A stretch of 64,000 bases of DNA, taken from the NCBI GenBank assembly GCA_027310725.1, contig DAIDAG010000039.1, positions 1 to 64,000 of the forward strand, in the 5' to 3' direction. A model generated the notes under the pieces. That model saw only the letters and a list, made by a program, of their open reading frames with translations, was not told where the DNA came from and made no database searches. The stretch is from Sideroxydans sp. (GTDB taxonomy: Bacteria; Pseudomonadota; Gammaproteobacteria; Burkholderiales; Gallionellaceae). Shown in pieces: positions 1,356-51,800 of this stretch. Positions within the stretch are counted from its first letter, which is position 1; the number at the start of each line of letters is the position of its first letter. The position numbers were made by a program, and so were the translations under genes.

Positions 1356-1525
1356 TTAATTGGTTCCATTTAAGCTACAGACTGGATAATTATTACCACC
1401 ACTGACAACTTATCCGCTTCGATATGATAGCAGCCAATGTCGACGTGAGTACATCAACAATGATGATTGCTTAGCCGACTGCTTCTGCAAACGCGAATGT
1501 TTTGTTAACCGATTAGGAGATGTAG
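1356..1525. promoter_or_regulatory. Divergent promoter region between the LysR gene and the oxidoreductase gene
   Basis: 170 bp that must hold both promoters and, by LysR family habit, the regulator's operator. The first half is AT-rich (TAATTATTACC around 1388-1398). An AGGAGA ribosome site lies at 1516-1521, just before the ATG of the oxidoreductase. No convincing -35/-10 pair is assigned. Confidence 0.5.
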
Positions 1526-31384: not shown

Positions 31385-31491
31385 CGATTAATGCTTGTTT
31401 TCAGGAAAGTACCGTCGTGAAAGGCCGTCTGTCCCTCACCAGTCGTTGTCGAACAATTTATGTCGGGTACCATATATCGGAAAGTTCGAAA

Positions 31492-31570
31492 TTCCAGATT
31501 TGAACTTTCCCACACCATTTACTCGTCTTAAGAAATATACGTTGGCAATGAGCAATATTCAAATCTGGAA
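31492..31570. repeat. Inverted repeat beyond the 3' end of integrase A
   Basis: TTCCAGATTTGAA at 31492-31504 and its exact complement TTCAAATCTGGAA at 31558-31570 are 53 bp apart, ending 15 bp before the integrase stop. The same pair with one mismatch lies at 49416-49493 beside integrase B with a 52-bp spacer. Paired sites next to a tyrosine recombinase suggest recombinase arm-type binding sites or the element end. Confidence 0.65.
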
Positions 31571-31584
31571 TGTGGCGTGTCAGC

Positions 31585-32748
31585 TCAGCTTACTGACTCA
31601 TCAACCTCGGCTGAAACCTTGGCTTGCTGTGGCTTCTTCCGCCGCCGGCTACCATAATAACTGGCCCCGATCGTCGGCCGGGTGTGCCCCGCTCGCTCAA
31701 CTAGCTTCAGGGTCGCCACATGGAATTCATCCGCCGGAATGTCATTGATATCACCGCCTTTCACCGGCGCATCTTGTCCTGTCAATCGCTTGAAACTCTC
31801 TTGCATGTATTGATGCCGCAAACCATGCGCTGAAACGCCCTCGTCCCTGAGGGTGATGCCTATGCTTTCCAAGACGGTATAAAAGCGGCGCCTTTTCTGT
31901 TCGTATGTCTTGCCACGAATACCGAGCCTGCCGGTCTTGCCGTCTGCCAATGCCTTCGCGCGCTGCAAGATGTCACGCTGAACATCGTTCTCTATAGGGA
32001 CTGTGCGTGGACGATCGCCCTTGGTACCTTCCCGAACGGAGATGTTGCCATTTTCCCCATCAATCGACGGACGGTACAAGATAGCTTCCCGCACCCGCAG
32101 CCCGAAACCCAAGCAGAGTTCCAGCCACATGCCCACGGTTTCATCCTTGACGGTCACTTTCTGGATCAAGTCCAAGACATTGATGCCATTGCCTTCCCAA
32201 GATTTGTCTTCCTGCACAACCATAGTCCGACGCACCGAGGCCCGGTCTTCCACGTACATGAACGAGTCGCCAACCATGCCGTATTTTCCGATCCATTCAC
32301 AAAACGTCCGCATGATTGAAATTTTGTTTTGGATGGTTGATGGGGCCTGCCCCTTTTTTTCCAGGTGAATAAACACGGCCCTAAGATGCTTCTGCTTGAG
32401 GTTGTAGATGGATTTGATGGAGTACCGTGGATTGCGCATCCGGATGAGGTCGGCAAAAAATCCTTTTATGACGGTACGTCGCTTGTCTTGCGTGCCTTGT
32501 CCAACCTTCTTGTCCTTATGGGCGGCCTCGTCCTTGTGCTGCTGCAGCACGATCTCGATCTGGCTGTTCAGTCTTTTCGGGATGAACCCTCCTGACTTGT
32601 GAGCGCTGTTCTTGCCGTCAATTCGGCCTGGTTTCGCGGGTGGGAGCTTCCGCCCAACCGCGACATTTTCCTTTACATGCTGTTGCTCGTGCTCCGTCTC
32701 AATCGCCAAGTCTGGATCCAGATTTCCTTCATTGTTTTCCATCACCAT
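31585..32748 (-). CDS. Tyrosine recombinase/integrase A (Integrase_1-like)
   Basis: A 387-residue tyrosine recombinase. The N-terminal 45 residues are charged and variable; a SAM-like DNA-binding domain covers about 60-165 (IYNLKQKHLRAVFIHLEKKG, IQNKISIMRTFCEWIG), resembling the Phage_int_SAM_2/Integrase_1 Pfam pair. Catalytic residues appear complete: Arg218 (FGLRVREAI), His308-x-x-Arg311 (AHGLRHQ), His355 (ERAGHTRP) and Tyr364/365 (ASYYGS). ATG 32748 is chosen because AGGAGA lies 6 bp upstream; an in-frame TTG lies five codons earlier. It is closely related to integrase B. It should excise or integrate the element; target site unknown. Confidence 0.9.
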   Translation of the reverse strand: MVMENNEGNLDPDLAIETEHEQQHVKENVAVGRKLPPAKPGRIDGKNSAHKSGGFIPKRLNSQIEIVLQQHKDEAAHKDKKVGQGTQDKRRTVIKGFFADLIRMRNPRYSIKSIYNLKQKHLRAVFIHLEKKGQAPSTIQNKISIMRTFCEWIGKYGMVGDSFMYVEDRASVRRTMVVQEDKSWEGNGINVLDLIQKVTVKDETVGMWLELCLGFGLRVREAILYRPSIDGENGNISVREGTKGDRPRTVPIENDVQRDILQRAKALADGKTGRLGIRGKTYEQKRRRFYTVLESIGITLRDEGVSAHGLRHQYMQESFKRLTGQDAPVKGGDINDIPADEFHVATLKLVERAGHTRPTIGASYYGSRRRKKPQQAKVSAEVDESVS

Positions 32749-33846
32749 CGTAATTCTCCTCAATTCTGCTCGTCATCCGGCCCACCTCTGCATCGGAAAG
32801 ATGTGATAGCAAAAGGTGGGAATCCATTGACTCGGTCCAGTCTAGACTGAGGTTTGCGCATTACCCGGCGCTAGGGTGTCTGGATTGACCGCCAGACGCG
32901 GCGAGTATCGATTCGACTGACATCGTCAGCCAGGTAAGTACGTTAGTCTCATCGGGTGGAGTGATGCGGTAGAGCATTTCTGCTCGAACCGTCAACGTCG
33001 CTATGCGACTCCGGCCACTACAGCCAGTCTCTTTTTTTGCCTTTTACGGCTCCCTTTGGTTTGAATCTTTCTCGCTACACACTCGGCATACTCTGTCACT
33101 CCCTACCACCGGGAGATATAGCCTTTCGGCACCGGTTTTTCCCTCGCCGACACAGCCGCGCCTAATGCAGCGGTCTATGAAGTACAGACAGTCATTCGAC
33201 TGTAAGGGGTGTGAAATGCGTACTGCGTCTTGTCCTGTTACGACATCTTCGTCTTCTTCTTCCCATCCTCGTGTCCACTTTTCCCGCCCCGTCGCTCGTA
33301 CTCCAACCCATTAGATTGGCGAACAACTCAGACAACCTGATTCCGCGCGTCACGACACCACCAGCCGACGGCGCGATGACCTGTCGGCCTCGTGCGTCAT
33401 AACTCTCGGTATCAAGCGCCCGTTAAGGGGGTACTGGTTTCTCTACTGATGTTTGATTTCGACTACTCGAATGTCTTGCCCGGACCGGGCGAGTGGCATG
33501 CGCAGACGGAGTAACCCCGTGTGACCTGCCTTAGATTCCAGCCGCATTTCTTTGGCCGGCATATGAGTTGCGCTGTGTGCGTTACTCGATTCGCGGGGGA
33601 CTAGCCCGCCTCTACTACGTTTAGGTATTGCGTTTTAAATCTAGCTTTTTTGCCATTTCAGGCGCACCTGCAGGTAAGCGCAGCTGATTTACCGTCAGCC
33701 AATCGTGTTCGCCGAAGCGAAGTACGTATATTGAATCATAAATAAATTCGCGGTGTCAAATTCGGACAGCGATTATCTCGGCCGTCACTATTCGATTCTG
33801 TCGCGAAGCATCCACGGCATCTGAATTTGGATAACACTCTCTATCC
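32749..33846. other. Conserved structured non-coding block A (candidate RNA or recombination DNA)
   Basis: 1098 bp upstream of integrase A with no credible gene, closely matched by 1095 bp upstream of integrase B. It is full of short inverted repeats kept in both copies: CAGTCTAGACTG (32838-32849), GAGCA-TTTC-TGCTC (32972-32985), GTCGC-TAT-GCGAC (32997-33009), ACAGTC-ATTC-GACTGT (33188-33203), GCGGG-N7-CCCGC (33593-33609), GCTGA-N7-TCAGC (33683-33699) and TTCGC-CGAA-GCGAA (33708-33721). Some arms changed on both sides between copies (see the hunt section). It could be a long integrase leader, a separate structured RNA on either strand, or a protein-binding recombination region. Confidence 0.65.
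33829..33846. other. Putative recombinase core site at the right edge of module A
   Basis: GGATA-ACACTCTC-TATCC: a dyad with 5-bp arms around an 8-bp spacer. It is identical at 51783-51800, and similarity between the modules ends exactly after it. Tyrosine recombinases cut at inverted core sites with a 6-8 bp overlap region, so this is a plausible att core. Function is inferred. Confidence 0.5.
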
Positions 33847-34105
33847 GTGCTTAGAAACAATATTTTTACTCTGAGGTATTTCAGTGAATTTCAAACTGGA
33901 GGTGAAGTTTGTTAGAGCTGTCAGAAAATGATCTTCGAAAATAAAAGTGCCCATTTTTGGGCTGTTTTCTGCTGGCAATTTTCTCGAAGCAAAAATAAGT
34001 GGCGAATAGTGGCCCCTTTTCTTCTACGCTGTGCAAATTCATTTTGAGAACTGCAAAAAAGTGCCCATTAAGGGTACACTAAGACGTAAGCGAGAAAGGG
34101 TATCT
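33847..34105 (+). promoter_or_regulatory. AT-rich region with repeated GTG(C/G)CCC words before the first cargo genes
   Basis: AT-rich leader of the cargo. GTGCCCATTTTT near 33948, GTGGCCCCTTTT near 34009 and GTGCCCATTAAGGG at 34061 share a core, and related GTGCCCCTTTTT words precede the first cargo gene after module B (51850, 51923). A shared regulator or replication-type protein may bind these in both elements. Confidence 0.4.
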
Positions 34106-34411
34106 ATGAGCAAGAAGGACACATTGCGATTCAAGGTCTGCGTATCATCTGGGTACGCGGAATTCTACGAGCACTTGAAAGAATTCGGCCCCTACTATCG
34201 CTCCAGGCGATTGCTTCAACTGGCGCAAATTGGCTTTTCGTTACAGAAGGGAATGGCGATCAGCGCTGCAATTCAAATGCCTACAGTTACAGTGCAAACT
34301 CCGGCAGAGGTATCCAGCAGCCCTCGACAAACTCACTATAATTTTAGCGATGATGCGACAAACCAAATCGCAGGCATGTTGGATGCCTTGGACACTTGGG
34401 GTACTGCCTGA
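34106..34411 (+). CDS. Small hypothetical protein of the island
   Basis: A 101-residue protein starting MSKKDTLRFKVCVSSGYAEFYEHLKEF, with a charged helical first half (YRSRRLLQLAQIGFSLQKG) that could be a small DNA-binding or relaxosome-type fold, and a Thr/Ser-rich second half. I recognise no family. ATG 34106 is preferred to an upstream in-frame ATG because AAGGG precedes it and the extra N-terminal residues overlap the GTGCCC repeats. First gene after module A; a regulator of the element is possible but unproven. Confidence 0.6.
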   Translation: MSKKDTLRFKVCVSSGYAEFYEHLKEFGPYYRSRRLLQLAQIGFSLQKGMAISAAIQMPTVTVQTPAEVSSSPRQTHYNFSDDATNQIAGMLDALDTWGTA

Positions 34412-35399: not shown

Positions 35400-35840
35400 C
35401 TATTTAGGCCACTCCGTATAGAATTCGCCGTTTGATTTGACAAACTCTGGCAGCCACTGCAGATCCATGATCGCCGAATTGAGACCGCACTCCCAAATGA
35501 CAAGCACCCTCCAACCGTTGTTGACCAGAAATTGAATCTGTCTTTTGTCCCGAGCCATATTTTGGTTGAACTTGTGAATCCATTTCCTGCGATTCTGTGC
35601 CGGCGTCGTGGCGAACCTGCATCCAGCGTGTCTGTGCCAGAAACATCCATGCACAAAGATGGCCAAGCGGTACTTGGCCAAAACGATATCCGGGCTTCCG
35701 GAAAGTTTCTTGTCATGCAGCCGAAAGCGAAATCCGCTGGAATGCAAAAATCGCCTCACCAGCATTTCCGGCTTGGTATCTTTGCTTCTTATGCTCGCCA
35801 TCATGCGAGAGCGCGTCTTTGTGTCGACTATATCGGTCAT
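35400..35840 (-). CDS. vsr: Very short patch repair endonuclease
   Basis: A 146-residue Vsr protein, close to family length. It has TRSRMMASIRSKDTKPE at the N-terminus, the LPGKPDI-equivalent LSGSPDIVLAKYRLAIFVHG with the catalytic aspartate, and HGCFWHRHAGCRF with the zinc-binding cysteine and histidines. It nicks 5' of T in T:G mismatches that arise when methylcytosine deaminates. It is divergent from the C5 methyltransferase gene with only 43 bp between start codons, the expected partner. ATG 35840 is preferred to a TTG three codons upstream. Assignment is firm. Confidence 0.95.
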   Translation of the reverse strand: MTDIVDTKTRSRMMASIRSKDTKPEMLVRRFLHSSGFRFRLHDKKLSGSPDIVLAKYRLAIFVHGCFWHRHAGCRFATTPAQNRRKWIHKFNQNMARDKRQIQFLVNNGWRVLVIWECGLNSAIMDLQWLPEFVKSNGEFYTEWPK

Positions 35841-35883
35841 TCTCTGCAATTTAAAAACATTCAGCTGGATTTAGTGTAAACCT

Positions 35884-37434
35884 ATGGATCAGACTACGCC
35901 TATTCCTGTCGTTGATCTATTTGCTGGCCCAGGCGGTCTGGGAGAGGGGTTCTCCGCTCTTGATGAAGGCAAAGCATTCAAAATCCTTGTTTCAGCCGAG
36001 ATGGACCCCGCAGCACACAGCACGCTCAGATTGAGAGCCTTCTACCGGATATTGAAGAACAAGGGAGGTGCATCTCTTGATAGTTATTATCGCTTCTGCA
36101 ACGGAAAGTCTGATGTTCCTTGGGATGACGAAACGAAGTGGGCATGGGATGAGGCGGTAAATGAGGCCAAGTGTATTACTCTCGGCAGTGAGGAGGGGAA
36201 CAAGGTTCTCAATTCGATTATTGACAATGCCGCGTTGGGTGCAGACACGCCTTGGATTCTCATTGGCGGGCCACCTTGCCAAGCATATTCATTGGTCGGG
36301 CGCGCGAGAAATCGGGGGAATACCGAATACAAGGCTGAAGAAGATCACCGCCATTACCTTTACAAAGAATACCTGAGAATAATTGCGCAATATCATCCAT
36401 CGATTTTCGTAATGGAAAATGTGAAGGGAATCCTTTCCGCAAAGGTCAATGGCGAAAAAATATTCCACTCCATTCTGCGTGACCTGTCGGATCCACAACT
36501 TGCAACCAAGAACAAGTCCGGCCTGGGATACAAAATCTATTCGCTTGTTGTCCCAACTCTTTTCACGAAAGGCATGAATCCCGAGAATATTGATGTTCAC
36601 GATTTTATCATCCGGGCAGAAAGTTACGGTATTCCGCAGGCAAGACATCGAGTCATTCTTCTGGGGGTACGGGAGGACATTGATGTTGTGCCTCCGCTTC
36701 TGAACAAAATGCCAGAATCGAATGTTGAAGATGCAATATCTGCCCTTCCTCGATTGCGCAGTCGCCTTAGCAAGGAAGCAGACAGCCCGGAAAATTGGTC
36801 TGCCAAGGTTGAGAAATTTCGATTGGAGCTTATTCGAGAAGCATCCAAGGCGAAGGGCCGGGAACAATTGGTCGAGATACTCAAAATGTATGACGGTCAC
36901 ATCACGTCCGCTCTCAACCACGGCTCATTGAGAATTGAAAGACTGAACCCGGAACAATTGGCGAATCCGCTCTTGGGTCCCTGGTATCACGATGACAAGT
37001 TGAATGTGTGGCTGAATCATGAGAGCAGAGGCCACATGGAAAGCGATCTTCGACGATACCTTTATGCATCTGCTTTCGCCTTGGCCGCTGATCACTCCCC
37101 CAAGGGACATGATGAATTCAATCTTGCCAAGCTGAGTCCAAACCACCTGAACTGGAAAACAGGCAAATTCGCGGATCGATTCAGAGTGCAGATGTACAAC
37201 CGGCCAGCTACAACAGTGACCAGCCATATTTCAAAAGATGGTCACTACTTCATCCATCCGGATCCGTCGCAATGCCGAAGTCTTACCGTTCGCGAAGCTG
37301 CGAGACTGCAAACATTCCCGGATAACTATTTCTTCCAGGGAAATCGTACCCAGCAATTTCATCAGGTTGGTAATGCGGTACCCCCCTTGCTTGCCTACCA
37401 AATTGCTTCAGCTGTAAAACAGCTTTTCACATAG
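35884..37434 (+). CDS. DNA (cytosine-5-)-methyltransferase
   Basis: A 516-residue C5 cytosine methyltransferase. Motif I is VVDLFAGPGGLGEGF (SAM binding); motif IV with the catalytic cysteine is GGPPCQAYSLVGRARNRG; motif VI is FVMENVKGIL; motif VIII is QARHRVILLGVR; the target-recognition region lies around 300-440; motifs IX-X are RSLTVREAARLQTFPD and QVGNAVPPLLAYQIA. It is longer than Dcm-type enzymes of about 400-470 residues because of an insert between motifs II and IV. It should protect host DNA and mark self for the neighbouring Z1/AIPR operon. Recognition sequence unknown. Confidence 0.95.
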   Translation: MDQTTPIPVVDLFAGPGGLGEGFSALDEGKAFKILVSAEMDPAAHSTLRLRAFYRILKNKGGASLDSYYRFCNGKSDVPWDDETKWAWDEAVNEAKCITLGSEEGNKVLNSIIDNAALGADTPWILIGGPPCQAYSLVGRARNRGNTEYKAEEDHRHYLYKEYLRIIAQYHPSIFVMENVKGILSAKVNGEKIFHSILRDLSDPQLATKNKSGLGYKIYSLVVPTLFTKGMNPENIDVHDFIIRAESYGIPQARHRVILLGVREDIDVVPPLLNKMPESNVEDAISALPRLRSRLSKEADSPENWSAKVEKFRLELIREASKAKGREQLVEILKMYDGHITSALNHGSLRIERLNPEQLANPLLGPWYHDDKLNVWLNHESRGHMESDLRRYLYASAFALAADHSPKGHDEFNLAKLSPNHLNWKTGKFADRFRVQMYNRPATTVTSHISKDGHYFIHPDPSQCRSLTVREAARLQTFPDNYFFQGNRTQQFHQVGNAVPPLLAYQIASAVKQLFT

Positions 37435-37469: not shown

Positions 37470-39581
37470 CTAGGCATTTGTCGTGTGCCGAAAGCCTTCG
37501 TCCTCAGCAGCCTCTTTTAGCTTCAGCAACTTCTTCCAGTCTTTCTCCAAGGCGATCTTGACGAAGCTTTGCGTGGTGCTGGCTTTCTGGATAAGCGATC
37601 GATCAGTTGTCGAGAATAAGGTGGCGCAATTTGGCCATGCAAGTAGTGCTTTCCAGTAGCCAGAAAAAGTCAGCTCAAAGACTTTCTCTTGAACGTTAAT
37701 ACCATCATCTATGGCGCCTTGTTTCTTGCCATCCGCCTTCTGAAGCTTGAACTCATCCTTTTCAATTGTTAGCGCATTTAATGACGGCACGGTCAACTCA
37801 AGATTCATGACATCGTTCCAGCATTGATCTTTCTTGCACCACTCCCCGACGTTACGCTCGCCTTCTGGCGGATTAACCAGGATATCCTGAATTTGCTGTC
37901 CCATGCTGGATAGTGCGCTCGACAATTCCGCCCCCACCTCTTGCCTGTTCCAGATTGACTCCAAATCTATTTCTCTACCTTGGCTTCGTGCCAGATGACC
38001 CAGCTTGGCAATAGTGTAGGTCACAATATTTGCCCTGTAACCTCCCTCGTACCACCCTCCCCTTGCTTCATCCACGATCCTCTCCATGAATCTCCATATC
38101 ATGGCGACAGACATCATATGTCTGAAATAGGTCTCGCCGTATTGCGGGCTGATTGTTTCCCAGTACTCCGCTTGGCCGATATCCTTTCCACCATCAAACT
38201 TGGCAGCAAATCTTATGAAATTTTTCTGTGCGCCAAGACTGACCCAGTGGGGCTTCTCATTCCATGTGTTGTCGTATTTCGCCAGGTCCGTTTTGTTGAC
38301 TAGCTGATTGGGAGGATATTCGCTATCGAAAGCATTCTTCTGGGACTGACTCAGGTAGAGACGTTCGTTTTGATACTGCCCACGTGACCGTTCGTAAAAC
38401 CACTTGCTTTGAATACGAATCCCAGCTCTCGCAGGGGTAAGCAGCCGTCGCGATATTTCTTCCATCTTCCTGTGGAATGGATGATTGGCGAAAAAATCAG
38501 CAACGTTCACTTTGTTCTGAGTGTTGGCGTATTCTGCAATTCTTGGAACCAGATCGTGTGCCTCGGCTTGGCCAACCGTCGTCAGCTTCATTTGCACAGA
38601 GACATTCTCCAGGGAAAGCCGATCTTTTTTCCTGGCTGTCAGCACACTGGCCGTTGTCTGCCCCCCATTTACAATTTGCAGGTCAGTAATTCTTGTTATG
38701 GTTGGCTGACCATTAATGCTTTCAATTTCCACATCGGATGCGGTAGCCGCAATCCCGTTGTTATAGGCAAAAAAGAGGTGTGGCTGATCTTGGATGGTCT
38801 TTCTTATGCCTTTGTTCACGCCACCACGCATGCCAAGGAATGATCGTACATTACCTTCCAGCAACCGACTTCCGTAGCGATCAAAGAGGTCGGCAAGAAG
38901 ATTGCCTCTGATGATACATAAATAGGATTTGCAGGAATTGTCCCCAGTAGCTTCTATGCAGGGAATTCCAGCTTGGCCGAAGTCGGACAACTCGATTTCG
39001 ACCAGTTCTCGTTCCCGGCTGGACTGATACAGAGCCATGAGTCTTGGCAAATCCCAGATATGACGCTCGAACGGTATTCCTGCAACCTCGCCCTGGAGTT
39101 CTTCCTTGAACTTGCTGCTCAGACTCAGGTTGGTGAAGATGTGAAGCCTGATCCGGCTAATTTTCTTTCGCTCGTTGTACAGCTGATAGGCCAGTTCATA
39201 GGCCGGGTTGGCCTCGGTAATCTTCTCGAAGAGATTATTTTCAATGGATTCGCGGACAAAGTTCTCTAACCAACCCGAGAGCTCGACTGCGCTGCCAGTG
39301 CTGAACGTGGCTGGCTGCGCAATGTCGCTCCACTTTCCAACAACAAGACCGAGGCTTCCGTCAGACTCCTCAAGGTGGGTATATCCGTGCAACTTCAGGG
39401 TCCTGTTTCTCCGGCCAGTCCCTTCCCACTCAGCCTGTTCAAACTCCCCGAAGACAGGATCCTCTTCTAGGCGTTCTGCAACCTCATTGACGAATGCGAG
39501 CGTATCAACCAGATGGCTTGCCTTGCTTCTTCTGGCGACAATCTGGCCAAGTTCGACGAGAAACTCTTCAGGATGCAGCAT
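37470..39581 (-). CDS. AIPR family protein (abortive-phage-infection type)
   Basis: A 703-residue protein of the AIPR family. The diagnostic centre is present: LLEGNVRSFLGMRGGVNKGIRKTI, then FFAYNNGIAATASDVEI and DLQIVNGGQTTASVLTA. AIPR proteins occur in phage-defence operons and are thought to act as nucleases or effectors. The ATG at 39581 has AGGAGG upstream and overlaps the PD-(D/E)XK gene by 14 bp; an alternative upstream start would add 25 poorly matching residues. Last gene of a four-gene operon (GHKL ATPase, Z1, PD-(D/E)XK, AIPR). It ends 35 bp from the convergent methyltransferase gene. Confidence 0.9.
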   Translation of the reverse strand: MLHPEEFLVELGQIVARRSKASHLVDTLAFVNEVAERLEEDPVFGEFEQAEWEGTGRRNRTLKLHGYTHLEESDGSLGLVVGKWSDIAQPATFSTGSAVELSGWLENFVRESIENNLFEKITEANPAYELAYQLYNERKKISRIRLHIFTNLSLSSKFKEELQGEVAGIPFERHIWDLPRLMALYQSSRERELVEIELSDFGQAGIPCIEATGDNSCKSYLCIIRGNLLADLFDRYGSRLLEGNVRSFLGMRGGVNKGIRKTIQDQPHLFFAYNNGIAATASDVEIESINGQPTITRITDLQIVNGGQTTASVLTARKKDRLSLENVSVQMKLTTVGQAEAHDLVPRIAEYANTQNKVNVADFFANHPFHRKMEEISRRLLTPARAGIRIQSKWFYERSRGQYQNERLYLSQSQKNAFDSEYPPNQLVNKTDLAKYDNTWNEKPHWVSLGAQKNFIRFAAKFDGGKDIGQAEYWETISPQYGETYFRHMMSVAMIWRFMERIVDEARGGWYEGGYRANIVTYTIAKLGHLARSQGREIDLESIWNRQEVGAELSSALSSMGQQIQDILVNPPEGERNVGEWCKKDQCWNDVMNLELTVPSLNALTIEKDEFKLQKADGKKQGAIDDGINVQEKVFELTFSGYWKALLAWPNCATLFSTTDRSLIQKASTTQSFVKIALEKDWKKLLKLKEAAEDEGFRHTTNA

Positions 39582-40554
39582 CCGCCCCCTCCTCAGCAAT
39601 TCTGAATGGCGCAATAGCGGACAGTGCAAGACTGTAGGAGATATCTGTAACCCCATTCGGCACGATTGACGTGCTCAAGCGGGGAAACCCGGCTGCTACC
39701 AGATATTTTTCTCTCTTCATGATGTTGAAGCACGCAGACTCATAGCATTCATGTTCGACATAGCCAGCCTCAAGCAGGTGTTCTCTGAAAACCAACAGTC
39801 CATTAGGAGCGCTGTATAACAAGCTTTCCAGTTCAGCAATCAGACCCATGAGACACAGGCAGTTGTTCTCGTCAGGAGCTGCTTCTCTCAAATAATATAT
39901 CCAGAGTTGAATAGGTGTAGTGGCTGATTCGAGCTGCTCGATAGAAGCTATCCCAACGCGATCCGCAGTAGGAGCTACGGCCTTGACCTCTACCGCCAAG
40001 TCGGAGAATACAAAATCCTGGTCAGTCTTGCGGGGGCCGGTCCAGGCAAAGACAATATCTGCCATGCCACCTTGGCTACTTTTCAAAAATGACCTGAGTG
40101 CAAGCAATTCTGCCATCAGCCCTTTGATTTGAAACTTTTCAAGGCAGCCAGCGTTTCCGCTCTGGAACAGCTTTTTCCAAAGAAGCAGTCGTTGCTTGAA
40201 CAGATTAATCAGCGCGGCCTGGCTGGGAACCAAGGCGGCCGCGTCAACAAGATCTTGGCATAGACGACCAAAGACCTGTTCCAGTTCATTTCGGGTCAGG
40301 CGGAGTACCATCAACCAACTGCCACCAGCTCGTTGATGACGAAAATACTCCAGGGCTTTCGTGCCAATATCAATTTCTGGCGGTCGGCTGTTTATCTCGA
40401 TGGCAAGCAGCACATTGCCAGCACCATCCATGCCTGCCTGAATATTGTGAAGAGACTCAACAGCAAGGCGAACCAGCCTGAAGTCTCCCTCCATTAGAGA
40501 TTCGCCAACACTTTTCTGACGAAGCTCCTGCCAGAGCGACTCAATCTTCGTCAT
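39568..40554 (-). CDS. PD-(D/E)XK motif protein (DUF4420-like)
   Basis: A 328-residue protein. The nuclease core is visible as IKGLMAELLAL (first acidic helix), then DQDFVFSDLAVEVKAVAP, where Asp and the E-V-K pair fit the PD-(D/E)XK signature. In Z1-containing restriction/defence operons this family (DUF4420) is a standard member. The second of two adjacent ATGs (40554) is 7 bp from AGGAG and is chosen; ATG 40557 is possible. It overlaps the Z1 stop by 14 bp and the AIPR start by 14 bp, so expression is tightly coupled. Confidence 0.87.
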   Translation of the reverse strand: MTKIESLWQELRQKSVGESLMEGDFRLVRLAVESLHNIQAGMDGAGNVLLAIEINSRPPEIDIGTKALEYFRHQRAGGSWLMVLRLTRNELEQVFGRLCQDLVDAAALVPSQAALINLFKQRLLLWKKLFQSGNAGCLEKFQIKGLMAELLALRSFLKSSQGGMADIVFAWTGPRKTDQDFVFSDLAVEVKAVAPTADRVGIASIEQLESATTPIQLWIYYLREAAPDENNCLCLMGLIAELESLLYSAPNGLLVFREHLLEAGYVEHECYESACFNIMKREKYLVAAGFPRLSTSIVPNGVTDISYSLALSAIAPFRIAEEGADAAS

Positions 40555-43285
40555 CATTGAGCTCCTCTTCATTCCCGAATATCGCACGCATGGCCACCTT
40601 GTTCAGACGATAGACCACCTTCTTTTCGTCATCAGAAGCGTTGGGGTCAAAATCAGGGAAGCTCAGGCTGATGGCAACCATGATGGGAGCTTCGATTTCC
40701 TCCGGGCGCATCATTTTCTCTGGATCTTCCTTGGGAGAGACGCACTGAATAAAGTGGATCGTCAACAATGGCCGAGACCGGAAGTCCCTAAACATGTAAC
40801 CAGGAATTCTCTCTCCTTTCTTCGGATCTTTTGCTCGCTCCTCCTCCCAGTTATTGCGCGTCAATTCAATTTCCTGCTGCGACATGCCAACCATTTCGTC
40901 AGTATTGTCGCCAACGCGTTGCTTGTTCAGTTTCAGATAATCAGTTTTCGAGAGGCCTCTCTCAAACTGCCGCTCTCTGCACCGAATAGGGCTTGATGTT
41001 CCATCATTCAGGAGAACTATAGTGTCAGGTACTGCCCCCCCCTTCCCTTGAGGAATGCAAATGTCCCAAGACTCCAACTCTGAAACCTTGTTTTCTGCGA
41101 TGAATTTGACCAGTGGCCGATCCTGATCTGCCAGGAAATCCATGTTCATGTTGCTGATGTTCAGCTCAGATAGAAAGGTGGCAATTTTCGATTTGCTGAT
41201 TCCTGTCCACAGATAACGAGAACCACCGAGCCATCTATCTTCTGAGCCTTCTGTGATTGCGGGTCCGAGGGAGCTGATCAGTCGATTTGCGATCTTGATA
41301 TTTTCCTCATGCAGATTCCCAGCCTTGGGTACATAGGCTGTTTCAGTCCCGTGTGCACTAAGAGAAATTCGCTGTTCAATCTGATCAGAATTTTTCATCT
41401 TGTTCTGAGCAGTAACGATAAGAGTGTCTGGATGAGCTTTCACGCGTATGCCAAATTGTGATGGCTGCATGCGATTTGCACTCATTCGCCTGAAATCTCT
41501 GCGAAGTTCGCTGACGGCAGTTGCGATATGTGCGTACCAGTCTTGAGCATCTTTATCCATCCAAATCCGAAAAACATCCTCGTATCCGGGACGATAGCCA
41601 AACCATCGGCCCATTTGCAGCAGCGTGTCATAGGCCTTCGAGTTGCGATAGAAGTAGCTGACGCACAGCCCTTCGAGAGTGAGTCCGCGGGAAAGGGTCA
41701 AGCCGCCAATGGCAATTACCCTTCGGCCTTTTGCTGTATTTTTGTATACCGAATAATTCAGCTTTTCTTCGTCAACGGATTTCTGATTGATTGTAAGTAC
41801 CGTTACAGATGCGATGGCGTCATAGAGTGCTTTCCGAACATCATTCCATGAAAATTCAAGGTCACCATATTCCGCATCCCATAGGCTGTACAGATTTGTG
41901 AGTTCGGGATGGCTCTCCCAAGAAGTGCTAAGCAGGTACTGCTTTATTTCCTCCTGCAGTCCCCAACCAAATTTCTGAACCTTCTCTTTGACTTTTTTCT
42001 GAACGTCATTGAACCGACTGACATTGATAAGCATGGATCGGTGCTTCAGGCTTTCCTTTCTGAGATCGCGCATTGCACAGCTCAGAAAAAAGATCCGGAT
42101 GGCATCTTTAAGACTGCCGGGAATATCTTCTACCTGAAGCGTTTTATCGTGTTTGTAGGGCAAAAGCCCTTCAGCATCATCAATAACCTTCAGCTGAGAA
42201 TAATGCTCCCCATCCTCCAGGAAAATGCTGCTGGCTCCGATGTAGTTGGATGGAGTATTGAGGCTGTATATGAAATCGGAAGGAAACAGGTCTTGGTCGT
42301 TGTCGGGATTAATGAAGATGTTGGCAAAAGGTGTCGCAGTGTAGGCAACATAGCTTGATCGCGAAAACTTCCGGCGAATTTCTCGAATGAGGCGATTTAT
42401 GGTTGCGGGGTCTTCATCTTTTTTGGTGTTGACGGACGCATTGTCGGCTTCATCGTCAATCATGAGAAATGGAACAGTAAGGAGATCCGATCCTGCGGGT
42501 ATCTGCTTGTTAAGCCATGTGTCGAGTTGCTTCAGAGGGCTTATGTTCTTCTTCATCACAAAAAGCACGGGCTCTTGAATGTTTCTTAATGGAATCCCTC
42601 CCAACGCAACGGCATTGTTTGTAAGGAAGTCCGAATTTACTGAGGTAAGGACGTTGGCTGAACGGTTCCGATAGATACCGGCTCCAATGGGAATTGTGTT
42701 TGCATTTCTATCCAGTACGTCTTGACTGTTTCGGCCGACAAAACCCTCATCCAGCCGTTCTTGAGTCTGCCGGCGAAGGTCTTCGATTATGCCTGTCAGC
42801 AGAACAATAACCTTGTATCCTGCGTCCGCAGCTTTAGCGATCAGTCCGGTATAGCTTGCAGTTTTCCCTGATTGAACATCCCCCATGACGAGCCCGCGCA
42901 ATTGCCACCCACTCTCGTCAGTTGGGTTTCCACACTCCGTAAGAATTTTGTCGGTATCTTCGTCCAGAACTCGGACAATTTCGTCGGCTCGTCCACTGGA
43001 AGTCAGCAACCGCCTATAGCTGTCCCAGTAATGCCACTTCACGCCTCCCTTGACGTCAGACAGCCAAGGCAAATGGTCTTTCTTGTGCATTACCTCGCCA
43101 ACGGTATGCGTAACGCCTATGGTTGCCTCAAGGCGGCTTCGGATATCTGCCAATATTTCCTGATTCAGGGTCCCGTCCAGCATTACCAACTTTCCGAGAA
43201 CTTCTTCAAGTAGTTCGTCTGTAAGAGGGCGGCCATTAATAACGCTCATGGCTATTCCCATGTGATCCATTTGCATTGAGCTCAT
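40541..43285 (-). CDS. Z1 domain superfamily 2 helicase-like ATPase
   Basis: A 914-residue Z1 protein. The ATPase has Walker A GLVMGDVQSGKTASY (Lys141), Walker B FLMIDDEADNASV, motif III SYVAYTATPFANIF, and arginine-finger motif QMGRWFGYRPGYEDVFRI. The central Z1 domain (VIAIGGLTLSRGLTLEGL) is characteristic. Z1 proteins are found with GHKL ATPases, PD-(D/E)XK proteins and DNA methyltransferases in anti-phage restriction systems, where they probably translocate on DNA. Its ATG overlaps the upstream stop (ATGA). Very clear assignment; mechanism inferred from the family. Confidence 0.93.
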   Translation of the reverse strand: MSSMQMDHMGIAMSVINGRPLTDELLEEVLGKLVMLDGTLNQEILADIRSRLEATIGVTHTVGEVMHKKDHLPWLSDVKGGVKWHYWDSYRRLLTSSGRADEIVRVLDEDTDKILTECGNPTDESGWQLRGLVMGDVQSGKTASYTGLIAKAADAGYKVIVLLTGIIEDLRRQTQERLDEGFVGRNSQDVLDRNANTIPIGAGIYRNRSANVLTSVNSDFLTNNAVALGGIPLRNIQEPVLFVMKKNISPLKQLDTWLNKQIPAGSDLLTVPFLMIDDEADNASVNTKKDEDPATINRLIREIRRKFSRSSYVAYTATPFANIFINPDNDQDLFPSDFIYSLNTPSNYIGASSIFLEDGEHYSQLKVIDDAEGLLPYKHDKTLQVEDIPGSLKDAIRIFFLSCAMRDLRKESLKHRSMLINVSRFNDVQKKVKEKVQKFGWGLQEEIKQYLLSTSWESHPELTNLYSLWDAEYGDLEFSWNDVRKALYDAIASVTVLTINQKSVDEEKLNYSVYKNTAKGRRVIAIGGLTLSRGLTLEGLCVSYFYRNSKAYDTLLQMGRWFGYRPGYEDVFRIWMDKDAQDWYAHIATAVSELRRDFRRMSANRMQPSQFGIRVKAHPDTLIVTAQNKMKNSDQIEQRISLSAHGTETAYVPKAGNLHEENIKIANRLISSLGPAITEGSEDRWLGGSRYLWTGISKSKIATFLSELNISNMNMDFLADQDRPLVKFIAENKVSELESWDICIPQGKGGAVPDTIVLLNDGTSSPIRCRERQFERGLSKTDYLKLNKQRVGDNTDEMVGMSQQEIELTRNNWEEERAKDPKKGERIPGYMFRDFRSRPLLTIHFIQCVSPKEDPEKMMRPEEIEAPIMVAISLSFPDFDPNASDDEKKVVYRLNKVAMRAIFGNEEELNDDED

Positions 43286-44748
43286 TCCGATAGTTCCTCA
43301 AGGATTCTGCTGTGGTGTTGGGGATAGCGTGCCAGGGGGTCAATGTTGAGTACGGCGGGAACATCAAGCCCGGTGATCCGAATGATGTTTGTTGCCAGTT
43401 CAATCAGTTCATGGATAAGACCTTCAGCGTCCGGATGACGGTGATCAGAACACATGTCTGCATAGATTGACTCTAGCGGGAGCGACCCAGTCAGCAATTC
43501 CAGGACGGCCTGGAGAATGCTCTGTTCCTCCTTGTCCAGTTTTTCGGAAAGGCTGGATATGGCGGGATGCTCACTGTTGATCTCATAACGAAATACCCCG
43601 TGCCTCGGTTCGATGCGCTGCCATAGAGGGACAAACTTTCCGTTCTTTTCTTTTCTGCCAGGATAAGTGATGGTTTTCCGACTTGAGCTGACGAAATGCG
43701 GTATCAAATCCCTGAGCCGGTTTCTGACGATATCTGGGGGGTAGGCAACTGACTTTTTGATGTCCAGTCCCCAAAGGTCATCAAGGGAGTTCGGGATGTC
43801 AACCTGAACACGAGTCAATTTGAAAAACTCGTCCTTGGGGACCAGTCGAAACCAAGTGCCCCAGATGACCAGCCGTCGGTTCCGATAGACATAGAATCCC
43901 TGACTTCCCCTGAGTCCGCTCCGCCCGCCTGCTGTCTCGATTTCTTCCGTCGAAAGATGACTGATTGGGGGAAGCACATAGGGCTTCACGGTAATTGTGG
44001 CGTCTCTGACCCTGATTTCCTGCCCCTCTAGGGGTTGCCTGAAATTGTTGTCTTTCAAGAAAGGATCCATCGGTCTCACTTTGACTCCGTTTACATAAAT
44101 CTCAACAGGATCAAAGTTGCCTTCTTTCTGGGAATATCTGTGAAAGACAAAACCGAGATGGTGGAGCAACTCGGACATCCGAGTTTTCATTTCTTCCTGT
44201 GGGCTGGAAGATCCAGACATCATTCTGTCGAGGGATTGCCAAACGACAAGTGTTCCTGAGAGCTTGCCTGCCAGATCTTGATAGAGTGGCAGTTGTTCCA
44301 GTTCTCGCTGGTCTGGAACCAGCACTACCCATTTTCCATCGGTCAGGCTCTGAAGATAATCAATATCCCAGCATCGAGCATGAATTGCGCCATTCTTCTT
44401 GCTTACAACCGTAAGTTTCCGACACTGCGACAAGGAGGCTGTTTTCAAACCAAGCCCGAACCTCCCCAGGTCATGATGAGCCCTTAGAGCATTCGGATTG
44501 CTGCTCCCATGGCGCATTGCGTTTGTCAGTTCAGTCGCATCCATGCCGTGGCCATCATCAAGGATTGCCACAAATGGGTCACGGCTTGCATCATATTCAA
44601 TCAAAATATGGGGAGCGCCGGCAGAAATGCTGTTGTCTACAATATCTGCTATTGCCGTTTCTGTTGTGTAACCTACGGCGCGCATAGATTCAATCAGCGA
44701 CACTGGGTCCGGGATTACTTCTAGCGATTGAATCAATTCAGACCCCAA
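43282..44748 (-). CDS. MutL-like GHKL ATPase of the Z1 defence operon
   Basis: A 488-residue GHKL ATPase. Motif N is TAIADIVDNSISAGA, G1 is ILDDGHGMDATEL, and G2 is GRFGLGLKTASLSQC, as in MutL/Hsp90/MORC proteins. A transducer-like second domain follows (RNRRLVIWGTWFRL, then KLTRVQVDIPNSLDDLWGLDIKKS, where the conserved lysine is expected). It heads the operon with Z1, PD-(D/E)XK and AIPR genes. The only start that keeps the ATP-binding N-terminus is TTG 44748, with no clear ribosome site, so translation may be weak or the start misjudged by a few codons. Confidence 0.88.
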   Translation of the reverse strand: MGSELIQSLEVIPDPVSLIESMRAVGYTTETAIADIVDNSISAGAPHILIEYDASRDPFVAILDDGHGMDATELTNAMRHGSSNPNALRAHHDLGRFGLGLKTASLSQCRKLTVVSKKNGAIHARCWDIDYLQSLTDGKWVVLVPDQRELEQLPLYQDLAGKLSGTLVVWQSLDRMMSGSSSPQEEMKTRMSELLHHLGFVFHRYSQKEGNFDPVEIYVNGVKVRPMDPFLKDNNFRQPLEGQEIRVRDATITVKPYVLPPISHLSTEEIETAGGRSGLRGSQGFYVYRNRRLVIWGTWFRLVPKDEFFKLTRVQVDIPNSLDDLWGLDIKKSVAYPPDIVRNRLRDLIPHFVSSSRKTITYPGRKEKNGKFVPLWQRIEPRHGVFRYEINSEHPAISSLSEKLDKEEQSILQAVLELLTGSLPLESIYADMCSDHRHPDAEGLIHELIELATNIIRITGLDVPAVLNIDPLARYPQHHSRILEELSE

Positions 44749-49311: not shown

Positions 49312-49415
49312 TAAATGTGTATTTTCAGGAAAGTACTGTCGTGAAGGGTCCTCTGCCCATCTCCTGACTTCATCCCGTAAGCAACGCCGGTAGCTATTTT
49401 CTGGAAAGTCCAGAT

Positions 49416-49493
49416 TTCCAGATCTGAATTTGCCTATACCTCTCACTGGCCTCATATACCAAAGTCAGTGACAAACAATTTTCAAATCTGGAA
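49416..49493. repeat. Inverted repeat beyond the 3' end of integrase B
   Basis: TTCCAGATCTGAA at 49416-49428 and TTCAAATCTGGAA at 49481-49493 are complementary except for one position and lie 52 bp apart, 15 bp before the integrase stop. Position and spacing match the pair at 31492-31570. A second partial CCAGATTT word at 49410-49417 overlaps the left arm. Confidence 0.62.
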
Positions 49494-49508
49494 AGTGGTG
49501 ACCACTAT

Positions 49509-50705
49509 TCAGTCCGCTAACTCGTCATACTCCGCGGATACAACCGTCTGCCGCGTTTTCTTCCGCCTCCGACTCCCATAATAACTCGCGCCGATCGCCG
49601 CCCGTGTGTGCCCCGCGCGCTCGACCAACTTCATGCTCGCCACGCGATATATATTCTCGGGAACAGCATTGATATCGCCGCCCTTGATCGGAGCGTCATG
49701 ACCAGTCAGCAATTTGTATTTCTCCTGCATGTACTGGTGCCGCAACCCATGAGCCGTAACACCCTCTACTTTCAAGGTAATGCCCAAGCTCTGCATGACA
49801 GTATAGAACCGACGTCTTTTCTGTGCGTAAGTCTTGCCGCGGGTACCGAGCATACCGGTTTTGCCGTCTGCCAAAGCCTTCGCGCGCTGCAAGATATCGC
49901 GCTGAACATCGTTTTCAACAGGGACCGTGCGCGGACGATCACCCTTGGTGCCTTCAAGAACGGAGATGTTGCCATATTCCCCATCAATCGACGGACGATA
50001 CAAAATGGCTTCCCGCACCCGCAACCCGAAACCTAAACAGAGTTCCAGCCACATGCCCACGGATTCATCCTTGTTGGTCACTTTCTGGATCAACTCCATG
50101 ACATTGATGCCATTGCCTTCCCAAGATTTATCGTCCTGCACGACCATAGACCTGCGCACCGACGCGTGATCTTCCACATATTTGATCGAGTCGCCCACCA
50201 TGCCGTGTTTGCCGATCCATTCGCAAAACGTCCGCATGATAGAAATCTTGTTCTGGATGGTCGATGGAGCTTGACCTTGTTTCTCCAGGTAGGTGAACAC
50301 GACCTTGAGATGCTTCTGCTTGAGGTTGTAGATGGATTTGATGGAGTACCGCGGATTTCGCATCCTGATCAGATCAGCAAAGAATCCCTTAATAACAGTA
50401 CGTCGCTTGTCCTGTGACCCCTGGCCAACCTTCTTGTCCTTATGGGCAGCCTTGTCCTTGTGCTGCTGCAGTACGATCTCGATCTGGTTGTTCAGTCGTT
50501 TCGGGATGAACCCACCGGACTTGTGCGGGCTGTTCTTACCGTCGACGCGTCCCGGTTTTACATTTGGAAGCTTCCTTCCACCTGTGACCTTCTCCACGTC
50601 CGCAGCCTTAGCATTGGAAGGAGGTTCGTTCTCGGTCTGCTGCTCATGCTTAGCTTCGCTCGTTTTCTGTGCACCATAATTTCCGTCGTTGCTCTCCATC
50701 ACCAT
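49509..50705 (-). CDS. Tyrosine recombinase/integrase B (Integrase_1-like)
   Basis: A 398-residue homologue of integrase A. The catalytic and core domains are almost the same (LELCLGFGLRVREAILYRP, AHGLRHQYMQE, VERAGHT, ASYYGSRRRKK), with all expected Arg, His-x-x-Arg, His and Tyr residues. Differences are concentrated in the N-terminal 45 residues, where B has a Lys/Glu-rich insert (KAADVEKVTGG), and in the C-terminal tail. ATG 50705 has AGGAGA 6 bp upstream as in copy A. Both enzymes look active, so the two elements could be mobilised separately or together. Confidence 0.9.
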   Translation of the reverse strand: MVMESNDGNYGAQKTSEAKHEQQTENEPPSNAKAADVEKVTGGRKLPNVKPGRVDGKNSPHKSGGFIPKRLNNQIEIVLQQHKDKAAHKDKKVGQGSQDKRRTVIKGFFADLIRMRNPRYSIKSIYNLKQKHLKVVFTYLEKQGQAPSTIQNKISIMRTFCEWIGKHGMVGDSIKYVEDHASVRRSMVVQDDKSWEGNGINVMELIQKVTNKDESVGMWLELCLGFGLRVREAILYRPSIDGEYGNISVLEGTKGDRPRTVPVENDVQRDILQRAKALADGKTGMLGTRGKTYAQKRRRFYTVMQSLGITLKVEGVTAHGLRHQYMQEKYKLLTGHDAPIKGGDINAVPENIYRVASMKLVERAGHTRAAIGASYYGSRRRKKTRQTVVSAEYDELAD

Positions 50706-51800
50706 CGTTATTCTCCTCAATTCGGCTCGTCATCCGGCCCACCTCCGCATCAACAAAATGCGGTCACTAAAAGTGGGGATCCATTGACTCGGTCCAGTCT
50801 AGACTGAGGGTCGCGCATTGCCCGGCGCTCGGGTGTCTGGTTTGACCGCCAAACGCGGTGAGTATCGATTCGACTGACATCGTCAGCCTGGTATGTACGT
50901 GAGTCTCATCGGGTGGAGTGATGCGGCTGACCATTTCTGCTCAGCACGGCAACGTCGCTTTGCGACTCTGGCCACTACAGCCAGTCTCTTATGCCTTTAC
51001 GGCTCCCTATGCTTTGAATCTTTCTCGATCACACACGCGGCATACTCTTTCACTCCCTACCACCAGGAGATATAGCCTTTCGGCACCGGTTTTTCCCTCG
51101 CCAACACAGCCGCGCCTTATGCAGCGGTCTATGATGTACAGACGACCAATAGGCCGTAAGGGGTGTGTAATGCGTTCTGCGTCTTGTCCTTTTCTGACAT
51201 CTTCGTCTTCCTCTTCCCATCCTCGTTTCCACTTTTCCCGCCCCGTCGCTCGTAATTCCAACCCATTGGATTGGCGACCGACTCAGACAACCTGATTCCG
51301 CGCGTCACGACACCACCAGCCGACGGCGCGATGACCAATTGGCCTCGTGCGTTGTGACTCTGGGTATCAAGCGCCCGTTAAGGGGGTACTGGTTTCTCTA
51401 CTGATGTTTGATTTCGACTACTTGAATGTCTTGCCCGGACAGGGCGAATGGCGCGTATCGACGAACTAATCCCGTCGGAGTTGCCTTGGATCACAGCTGC
51501 ATTTCTGCGGCCGGTTTATGAGTGCGCTGTGTGCGTTACTCGATTCGCGGGGGACTAGCCCGCATTGCGCTTCGCAAGAAGCTGTTTGGAATTCCAGTTT
51601 CTATCGCCATTGCTGGCGGCACCTACTGACAAGCACAGCTGATTTCCCGTCAGCCAAACGTACTCGCCGGAGCGAATGATGAGCATTGAAACATGAACAA
51701 ATTCGCGCTGTCAATTCGGACAGCGATTATCTCGGCCATCACTGTTCGATTCTGCCGCGAAGCATCCACGGTGTCTGGATTTGGATAACACTCTCTATCC
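50706..51800. other. Conserved structured non-coding block B
   Basis: 1095 bp homologous to the block at 32749-33846. The same hairpins occur: CAGTCTAGACTG (50795-50806), GCTGA/TCAGC around 50926-50945, GTCGC-TTT-GCGAC (50954-50966), ACGACC-AATA-GGCCGT (51142-51157), GCGGG-N7-CCCGC near 51547, TCGC-CGGA-GCGA (51664-51675). An open frame at 50918-51295 aligns with one at 33003-33314 but small indels put the copies in different frames for part of it, so protein coding is unlikely. Confidence 0.65.
51783..51800. other. Putative recombinase core site at the right edge of module B
   Basis: Identical 18-bp dyad GGATA-ACACTCTC-TATCC as at 33829-33846, again exactly where similarity between the modules ends and cargo begins. 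Interpreted as a recombinase core or element terminus by analogy with tyrosine recombinase sites. Confidence 0.5.

What the first reader, a model, noticed from the sequence alone, without database searches (positions are those of the whole stretch)
32749..33846. Conserved 1.1-kb non-coding block with compensatory base changes beside integrase A (and B)
Blocks 32749-33846 and 50706-51800 are homologous and nearly equal in length (1098 and 1095 bp) but hold no credible gene. Hairpins persist despite substitutions. Best case: ACAGTC-ATTC-GACTGT (33188-33203) corresponds to ACGACC-AATA-GGCCGT (51142-51157); two of six pairs changed on both sides (A-T to G-C, T-A to C-G), with one A-C mismatch. At 32967-32991 versus 50924-50948, eight substitutions in 32 aligned positions still leave a helix, shifted in register. 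GTCGC/GCGAC and TCGC/GCGA stems vary only in the loop. This pattern suggests a large structured RNA or a folded single-stranded recombination substrate tied to this integrase family. I know of no description of it.
Basis: seen in the sequence. Interest (0 to 1): 0.86.

Follow-up and report, generated by a model that had tools for sequence, protein, structure and literature searches.

The report
Giant structured RNA in defence islands
The odd gene-free block appears to be a gene for a very large folded RNA, of a kind not in the RNA family library, that sits beside DNA-integration enzymes and anti-virus genes in mobile islands of iron-oxidising bacteria.

Summary
Blocks A (32750-33846) and B (50707-51800) are 86% identical and hold no conserved open frame. 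Relatives in other Gallionellaceae give 17 copies in 12 of 158 family genomes, in two subgroups. Sequence-only alignments show strong covariation: 54 of 160 pairs (6 copies) and 58 of 100 (10 copies) changed on both sides, against 21 and 31 after shuffling. Fold z is -16 and -17; neighbouring recombinase genes give about 0. The RNA is read from the minus strand behind a sigma-70-like promoter (16 of 17 copies, no shuffle control), about 0.7-0.95 kb. No Rfam family reaches its threshold. It is not simply an integrase leader: one copy is inverted, six follow a different recombinase, five have neither recombinase nearby. For 9 of 11 copies scanned a neighbour firmly matches an anti-phage model; no background rate was measured. 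Best reading: a new class of giant ncRNA carried by defence-bearing integrative elements, like GOLLD/ROOL in kind but not a member. Its job is inferred. No expression data were available.

The parts
32780..33722 (-). Copy A of the giant RNA (about 0.94 kb); both ends inferred (5' end from the promoter, 3' end from loss of conservation)
   Evidence: minus-strand covariation; homologues
33323..33429 (-). Core hairpin domain of copy A used for the covariance model
   Evidence: R1 match 110.6 bits (A is one of the model's own sequences); 24 of 35 pairs changed on both sides among 16 distinct rows
33730..33759 (-). Sigma-70-like promoter of copy A: TTGACA - 18 nt - TTCAAT
   Evidence: similar hexamers at the same place in 16 of 17 copies (no shuffle control)
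33708..33721 (-). First hairpin after the promoter (TTCGC-TTCG-GCGAA)
   Evidence: hairpins of other sequence at this place in most copies
33188..33203 (-).
32997..33009 (-). GTCGC/GCGAC hairpin
   Evidence: place of helix 17 of alignment A8
32972..32985 (-). GAGCA-GAAA-TGCTC hairpin
   Evidence: helix 18 of alignment A8
33760..33846 (-). Conserved stretch upstream of the promoter, with an AGAGTG motif seen in 9 of 10 group-1 copies printed
31585..32742 (-). Tyrosine recombinase A (Pfam PF12835, Integrase_1); start codon about 37 nt after the RNA's inferred end
31491..31571 (.). Inverted repeat TTCCAGATTTGAA ... TTCAAATCTGGAA just behind integrase A; possible recombination site
   Evidence: this repeat was seen only behind A and B among 11 integrases looked at
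50737..51677 (-). Copy B of the giant RNA (ends inferred)
51278..51384 (-). Core hairpin domain of copy B
   Evidence: R1 match 105.1 bits (B is one of the model's own sequences)
51685..51714 (-). Promoter of copy B: TTGACA - 18 nt - TTCAAT
51142..51157 (-). Variable hairpin of copy B
49509..50699 (-). Tyrosine recombinase B (PF12835), 81% identical to A
49415..49494 (.). Inverted repeat behind integrase B, like that behind A
37470..44748 (-). Anti-phage cargo between the two copies: matches to MzaE, MzaD, MzaC and MzaB (MZA system; system name recalled)
   Evidence: PADLOC and Pfam
35400..37434 (.). Vsr endonuclease (-) and 5-methylcytosine methyltransferase (+)

Best explanation
The block is a gene for a previously undescribed, very large structured non-coding RNA. 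It is transcribed from the minus strand by its own sigma-70-like promoter and folds into many hairpins and longer-range helices, about 0.94 kb in the window's subgroup and about 0.7 kb in the second. It works as RNA, not through a protein. It is a module of integrative elements that carry anti-phage systems; in the copies whose surroundings I read best it lies between a recombinase gene and such cargo. SHOWN here: covarying structure, no conserved frame, two subgroups, a recurring promoter-like signal, and changes of position and orientation relative to recombinases. INFERRED: that it is transcribed, that it acts in trans as a stable RNA or RNP (in the manner of GOLLD or ROOL), and that it serves the element, by helping its establishment, its control or its defence cargo. 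I hold the structured-RNA claim at about 0.93 and the trans-acting, element-serving role at about 0.4.
For: RNAalifold against 20 column shuffles: z -16.2 (6 group-2 copies) and -17.1 (10 group-1 copies), opposite strand -6.8 and -7.7. Recombinase coding sequences, 5 group-1 and 6 group-2 loci, 15 shuffles: -0.2 to 1.3. Pair counts on sequence-only alignments exceed 500 of 500 shuffles and fall from 54 and 58 double-changed pairs to 12-19 and 11-24 when slid. Core domain: 24 of 35 pairs changed on both sides (that alignment is fitted to the model). Promoter-like hexamers in 16 of 17 copies, G441 degraded; in five of six group-2 copies the -35 box overlaps the recombinase stop codon. Two copies in one complete genome (G443a, G443b) are 91% alike over about 1.1 kb with unlike flanks, so the unit is separable. 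Genomes with close relatives of integrase A/B, 6 of 6 among the 12 RNA genomes (P 5e-8; without the four seed genomes 2 of 2, P 0.002). Second recombinase, 6 of 9 (P 4e-6; without the seeds 5 of 8, P 4e-6); bit-score cuts were set after seeing the lists and genomes were treated as independent. Defence-model matches beside 9 of 11 copies scanned.
Against: No transcript was seen; there were no RNA data. Both ends are inferred; a terminator-like site on the 3' side was found only in G441, of the 16 copies whose 3' side was at hand. The long-range closing helix I proposed is not supported (cognate -9.0, non-cognate -7.9, shuffled -7.1, lowest shuffle -8.98 kcal/mol). Structures were predicted on the alignments on which they were counted; R-scape was not available. 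The family is known from 12 genomes of one bacterial family, 11 of them in more than one contig. Neighbours for the defence scan were chosen by eye, without a background rate; neither of two genes beside B matched. Of the other C1-type recombinases, G428 has no recognisable RNA behind it and G509 only a match to the promoter end (E 2e-5). G544 has the outer parts without the core domain, so that domain is not essential to the family.
Confidence: 0.8

Rival explanations
1. A giant cis-acting leader: the RNA is the 5' untranslated region of the integrase mRNA and controls its expression.
For: In A, B, G001a and G001b the RNA points at the integrase and ends within about 0.2 kb of it. No terminator-like site was found between them. 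Distant relatives of the integrase also have long conserved upstream DNA without an obvious gene.
Against: In G018 the block is inverted relative to the integrase. In six group-2 copies the RNA lies downstream of a different recombinase. G488, G445, G443a, G443b and G473 have neither recombinase among the frames within 8 kb.
Confidence: 0.15
2. A guide or scaffold RNA for the recombinase: its loops pair with recombination sites, or it shapes the synapse (bridge-RNA-like).
For: Genome co-occurrence with two recombinase families; a hairpin with variable sequence and conserved shape.
Against: No match longer than chance between the RNA and the DNA behind integrase A or B (9, 9, 7 and 8 nt; shuffle means 8.2-8.6); the true attachment sites are unknown. 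I recall no tyrosine recombinase that uses a guide RNA. Some copies have neither recombinase nearby.
Confidence: 0.1
3. An accessory part of anti-phage defence: the RNA itself senses, traps or regulates, and travels with defence genes for that reason.
For: Nine of 11 copies scanned lie beside matches to Mza, PglZ/BrxL, GajA, type I restriction or methylation, MkoA, Dsr1, BilD or caspase models. In G488 the RNA follows the BrxL gene with only a 128-aa frame between.
Against: The systems differ from copy to copy, so there is no single partner; no background rate was measured.
Confidence: 0.2
4. A folded single-stranded DNA recombination substrate, as in integron attC sites.
For: Adjacent recombinases; many hairpins.
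Against: Strong strand bias of the fold, a promoter-like signal at the start, nearly 1 kb of varied helices. attC sites were not searched for. The G-U excess is not decisive: control coding sequences show it too.
Confidence: 0.03
5. A decayed or cryptic protein gene.
For: Listed frames of 103 and 125 aa within the blocks; a 213-codon stop-free run in one copy, G545.
Against: At least 4 stops in each of six frames in 16 of 16 copies; no Pfam match to the two frames.
Confidence: 0.01

Closest known systems
GOLLD RNA
   Same: Large RNA (many members over 800 nt) with elaborate covarying structure, on mobile DNA, function unknown (PMC12286853, passages read)
   Different: No covariance match. GOLLD is described from phages and prophages, often near tRNA islands; here the RNA lies beside recombinases and defence genes, and copy B and a group-2 copy found nothing in 50,697 phage records
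ROOL RNA
   Same: Ornate RNA (659 nt in the example described) of phages and prophages, no function described; the second subgroup here is of similar length
   Different: No covariance match; setting as above
OLE RNA
   Same: Large ornate bacterial RNA of about 600 nt
   Different: No covariance match; OLE is mostly of Gram-positive extremophiles or anaerobes (abstracts listed)
About 800-nt ncRNA of phage ICP1 (PMC7567579, passages read)
   Same: Long ncRNA from a roughly 1-kb orf-less space of a mobile genome
   Different: Sequence relation not tested; it lies beside a phage lysis cluster
IS110 bridge RNA (recalled)
   Same: Structured RNA beside a recombinase gene
   Different: Other recombinase class and a far smaller RNA (recalled); no guide-like match found

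Membership tests
GOLLD / ROOL / OLE and all other Rfam 15 families | score at or above the family's covariance model threshold | tested here: not met
   window at gathering threshold, 0 matches; copy A at E up to 5, 0 matches; group-2 copy L085 at E up to 5, one snoRNA match at E 0.14, far under its threshold; other loci at gathering threshold, tRNAs only
Large ornate ncRNA (as a descriptive kind) | several hundred nt with extensive covarying secondary structure and no conserved frame | tested here: met
Large ornate ncRNA (as a descriptive kind) | abundant stable transcript, oligomeric structure | not testable with these tools
   needs RNA and cryo-EM
Group I / group II intron | match to the intron models of Rfam | tested here: not met
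Integron attC site | attC site recombined by an IntI integrase | not tested
   integrases A and B match PF12835 and, below cut-off, Xer models; neither IntI nor attC was searched for
IS110-type bridge RNA system | IS110 recombinase beside the RNA | tested here: not met
   the genes beside copies A and B match PF12835; neighbours of other copies were scanned only in part
IS110-type bridge RNA system | loops complementary to donor and target | tested here: inconclusive
   no match above chance to the DNA behind integrases A and B; true attachment sites unknown
MZA defence system (cargo of element A) | MzaB-E proteins together (system recalled) | tested here: met
   four adjacent genes match MzaE, MzaD, MzaC and MzaB

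The most novel reading that the evidence does not exclude
Defence-bearing integrative elements carry their own giant RNA as a working part, shared across different recombinases, and the wider integrase family does so too: distant relatives of this integrase in another genome of the class (three copies) and on Cupriavidus, Paraburkholderia and Caballeronia megaplasmids also lie beside 1.1-1.6 kb of conserved upstream DNA without an obvious gene and with signs of structure. Integrase-linked giant RNAs may be an old, general and unnoticed layer of mobile-element biology.
Probability: 0.35. Interest if true: 0.93.

Novelty: new variant of a known kind. Interest (0 to 1): 0.82.

Why it matters
Only a few classes of very large structured bacterial RNA are known, and their functions remain poorly understood (PMC12286853, passages read). 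This looks like another, matching none of the Rfam models, and its setting is informative: it rides with recombinases and anti-phage systems. That gives a concrete handle on what giant RNAs do for mobile DNA, and it suggests searching gene-free stretches beside integrases for RNAs. Related megaplasmid loci lie in Cupriavidus strains that can be cultured (recalled), where a test would be easy.

Tried and rejected
Rejected or not supported: protein gene; Rfam families; a match by DNA similarity to plasmids or E. coli genomes (copy A), phages (copy B), or plasmids and phages (group-2 copy L085); a guide match to the DNA behind integrases A and B; a closing long-range helix; G-U excess as a strand test (controls show the same bias); a general attachment site behind this integrase family (only A and B share the inverted repeat among 11 integrases looked at).

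Led nowhere: viral-contig scans with the integrase and the second recombinase (no relative) and with four DNA patterns (four hits, taken as chance, nhmmer E 0.005-0.2 over that small set; none). The class-wide search with R1 found only the own genome among 369. The order-wide search with R2 found 3 of 399 genomes, all of the window's family. These searches score only about ten candidates per genome, and the models cover only the core domain, so absence elsewhere is not proven. The search for relatives of the G371 block found only G371 itself among 126 genomes. The second recombinase's profile gave no credible PDB match, no Pfam or NCBIfam family, and its comparison with integrase A/B aligned only the last 46 residues, 36% probability, E 0.0004. 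That it is a tyrosine recombinase rests on phrog_216 at E 0.002 and on conserved R, K, HxxR and Y residues that I recognised by eye.

Literature: nine searches listed no paper whose title or opening lines describe such an RNA. The library holds only openly licensed PMC papers. Passages were read in PMC12286853, PMC7567579 and PMC7563307; all other papers were seen as listings only.

Full report
Observation. Blocks 32750-33846 (A) and 50707-51800 (B) are homologous, 86% identical, and more alike than the integrase genes next to them (85.3% for the RNA part, 80.2% for the integrase CDS). Both lie directly upstream of integrases of Pfam family Integrase_1. Frames of 103 and 125 aa are listed in them, without a Pfam match, and no frame is shared: in 16 of 16 copies each of six frames has at least four stops. 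The window comes from a draft genome of 3.03 Mb in 80 contigs. The two named relatives of its integrase are in a Sideroxydans and a Gallionella MAG, so I take the family as Gallionellaceae.

Relatives. blastn found diverged relatives of the block in 3 further genomes, all of the genus, among 61 genomes searched (34 of the genus). Windowed RNAalifold on five copies gave a very strong signal on the minus strand in one place (z -10.6) and weaker ones elsewhere. A covariance model of that core, from six copies, found 17 copies in 12 of 158 family genomes, three of them in the window's own genome and three in a complete genome. A second model from all 17 found the same set. Outside the family: 1 of 369 genomes of the class (the own genome) and 3 of 399 of the order, all of the window's family. 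By blastn the copies fall into two subgroups: 11 in group 1, with A and B, and 6 in group 2.

Structure. On the core, 24 of 35 pairs are changed on both sides and 90.3% of cells pair, against 73.4% shuffled and 35-49% slid; this alignment is fitted to the model. On alignments made from sequence alone, group 2 (6 copies) has 54 of 160 pairs changed on both sides against 21.2 shuffled and 12-19 slid, and group 1 (10 of 11 copies; G022 is cut short) has 58 of 100 against 31.3 shuffled and 11-24 slid. In both cases the structure was predicted on the same alignment. Energy z against column shuffles is -16.2 and -17.1 on this strand and -6.8 and -7.7 on the other. Recombinase coding sequences of five group-1 and six group-2 loci, treated the same way, give -0.2 to 1.3. 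G-U pairs are in excess over A-C, but also in those controls, so I do not use this. A long-range closing helix that I suspected did not pass.

Promoter and ends. Just before the conserved RNA, 16 of 17 copies have a TTGAC- or ATGAC-type -35 box and a -10-like box 17 or 18 nt apart; G441 is degraded (no shuffle control). In five of six group-2 copies this -35 box overlaps the stop codon of the recombinase gene. A hairpin follows in most copies. The 3' end is set only by loss of conservation; a terminator-like site on that side was found only in G441.

Anatomy. In A, B, G001a and G001b the RNA is followed on the same strand by an integrase of the A/B family. In G018 the block is inverted relative to its integrase, and a frame that reads like a large serine recombinase lies on the RNA's other side (recognised by eye). 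In six group-2 copies a different 302-aa recombinase-like gene lies directly upstream, with a small companion frame before it in five. G488, G445, G443a, G443b and G473 have neither recombinase among the frames within 8 kb; G443b has a PF00589 integrase ending about 1.1 kb before the core. Genomes with close relatives of integrase A/B (above 370 bits, 6 of 158) all hold the RNA. For the second recombinase (above 200 bits) it is 6 of 9. Of the other three, G544 has the RNA's two outer parts without the core domain, G509 shows only a match to the promoter end, and G428 nothing. In L118 and L117 (genomes G475 and G443) the RNA's 3' part lies upstream of an A-like integrase, at once or about 3.7 kb away.

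Cargo. PADLOC was run on chosen large neighbour genes of 11 of the 17 copies. Nine have a firm match: Mza proteins with Vsr and a methyltransferase (A), GajA (G001b), PglZ and BrxL (G488), Dsr1 (G443a), MkoA (G443c), type I methyltransferase (G475), type I restriction enzyme (G000c), PDC-S65 and caspase (G441), BilD (G467). G445 matches effector models (E 2e-14), but Pfam reads it as a cyclic-nucleotide-binding channel, so I do not count it; for B neither of two genes matched. The system names MZA, Gabija, BREX and the like are recalled. The genes were chosen by eye and no background rate was measured. tRNA genes lie within the fetched stretch of four group-2 copies and of G018.

Reading. A module that keeps promoter and fold while its position, orientation and recombinase change is best read as a trans-acting RNA gene rather than a leader or a DNA substrate. 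That it acts for the element, and how, is inference. It resembles GOLLD and ROOL in size, in ornate structure and in riding on mobile DNA (PMC12286853, passages), but matches neither model, and it is found with recombinases and defence genes.

Wider lead. Three distant integrase copies in genome G371 have about 1.6 kb of conserved upstream DNA. Substitutions between two of them show no codon periodicity, windows in the integrase gene itself fold like shuffles, and the upstream stretch has fold z of -9.4 and -14.9 on the two strands, with 8 shuffles; long stop-free runs exist there (up to 340 codons), so a gene is not excluded. Nine of nine plasmid relatives that I fetched, of 175 records with a match, have 1.1-1.3 kb with no listed gene, or almost none, beside a PRTRC system protein D gene and upstream of the integrase; in one, a further frame lies between that stretch and the integrase, and in pHG1 a small frame lies in it. 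The plasmid gene table is incomplete. Those blocks are related to each other and show some structure (z -8.1 in one window, on the strand opposite to the integrase, unlike A and B), with no sequence match to the Gallionellaceae RNA and no Rfam match in four of them. This is a lead, not a result; the plasmid block could also be a partition or replication region.

Noticed in passing
L114 (genome G544), about 1341-2029 (-): Second-type recombinase followed by an RNA that has the 5' and 3' parts of the family but lacks the central core domain, so the RNA is modular and core-based counts are lower bounds.
   Followed up: partly
L121-L129, upstream of the integrase: In nine of nine plasmid records fetched (Cupriavidus, Paraburkholderia, Caballeronia), integrases related to A/B have a conserved block of 1.1-1.3 kb with no or almost no listed gene upstream, with a terminator-like hairpin plus T run inside it.
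   Followed up: partly
L050-L052 (genome G371): Three distant integrase copies each with about 1.6 kb conserved, non-periodic, possibly structured upstream DNA.
   Followed up: partly
window 37470-44748: Matches to MzaB-E; with Vsr and a 5mC methyltransferase they lie between the two integrase-RNA units, as if two islands stand in tandem.
   Followed up: partly
G000 contig C60:12601-12708 (+), locus L078: Third RNA copy in the same genome, of the other subgroup, near a type I restriction enzyme gene.
   Followed up: partly
upstream of the promoter in group-1 copies, e.g. about 33830-33840 in the window: AGAGTG motif about 80 nt before the promoter (measured in A and G473), present in nine of ten group-1 copies printed (not G018); possible regulator or recombinase binding site.
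   Followed up: no
window 13887-23561 (-): A 3224-aa protein with RTX calcium-binding repeats and Ig-like domains, with long internal repeats.
   Followed up: no
window 34031-34411 (+) and L079 upstream of its RNA: Related small proteins of 126 and 128 aa without a Pfam match above cut-off beside the RNA in copies A and G488.
   Followed up: no
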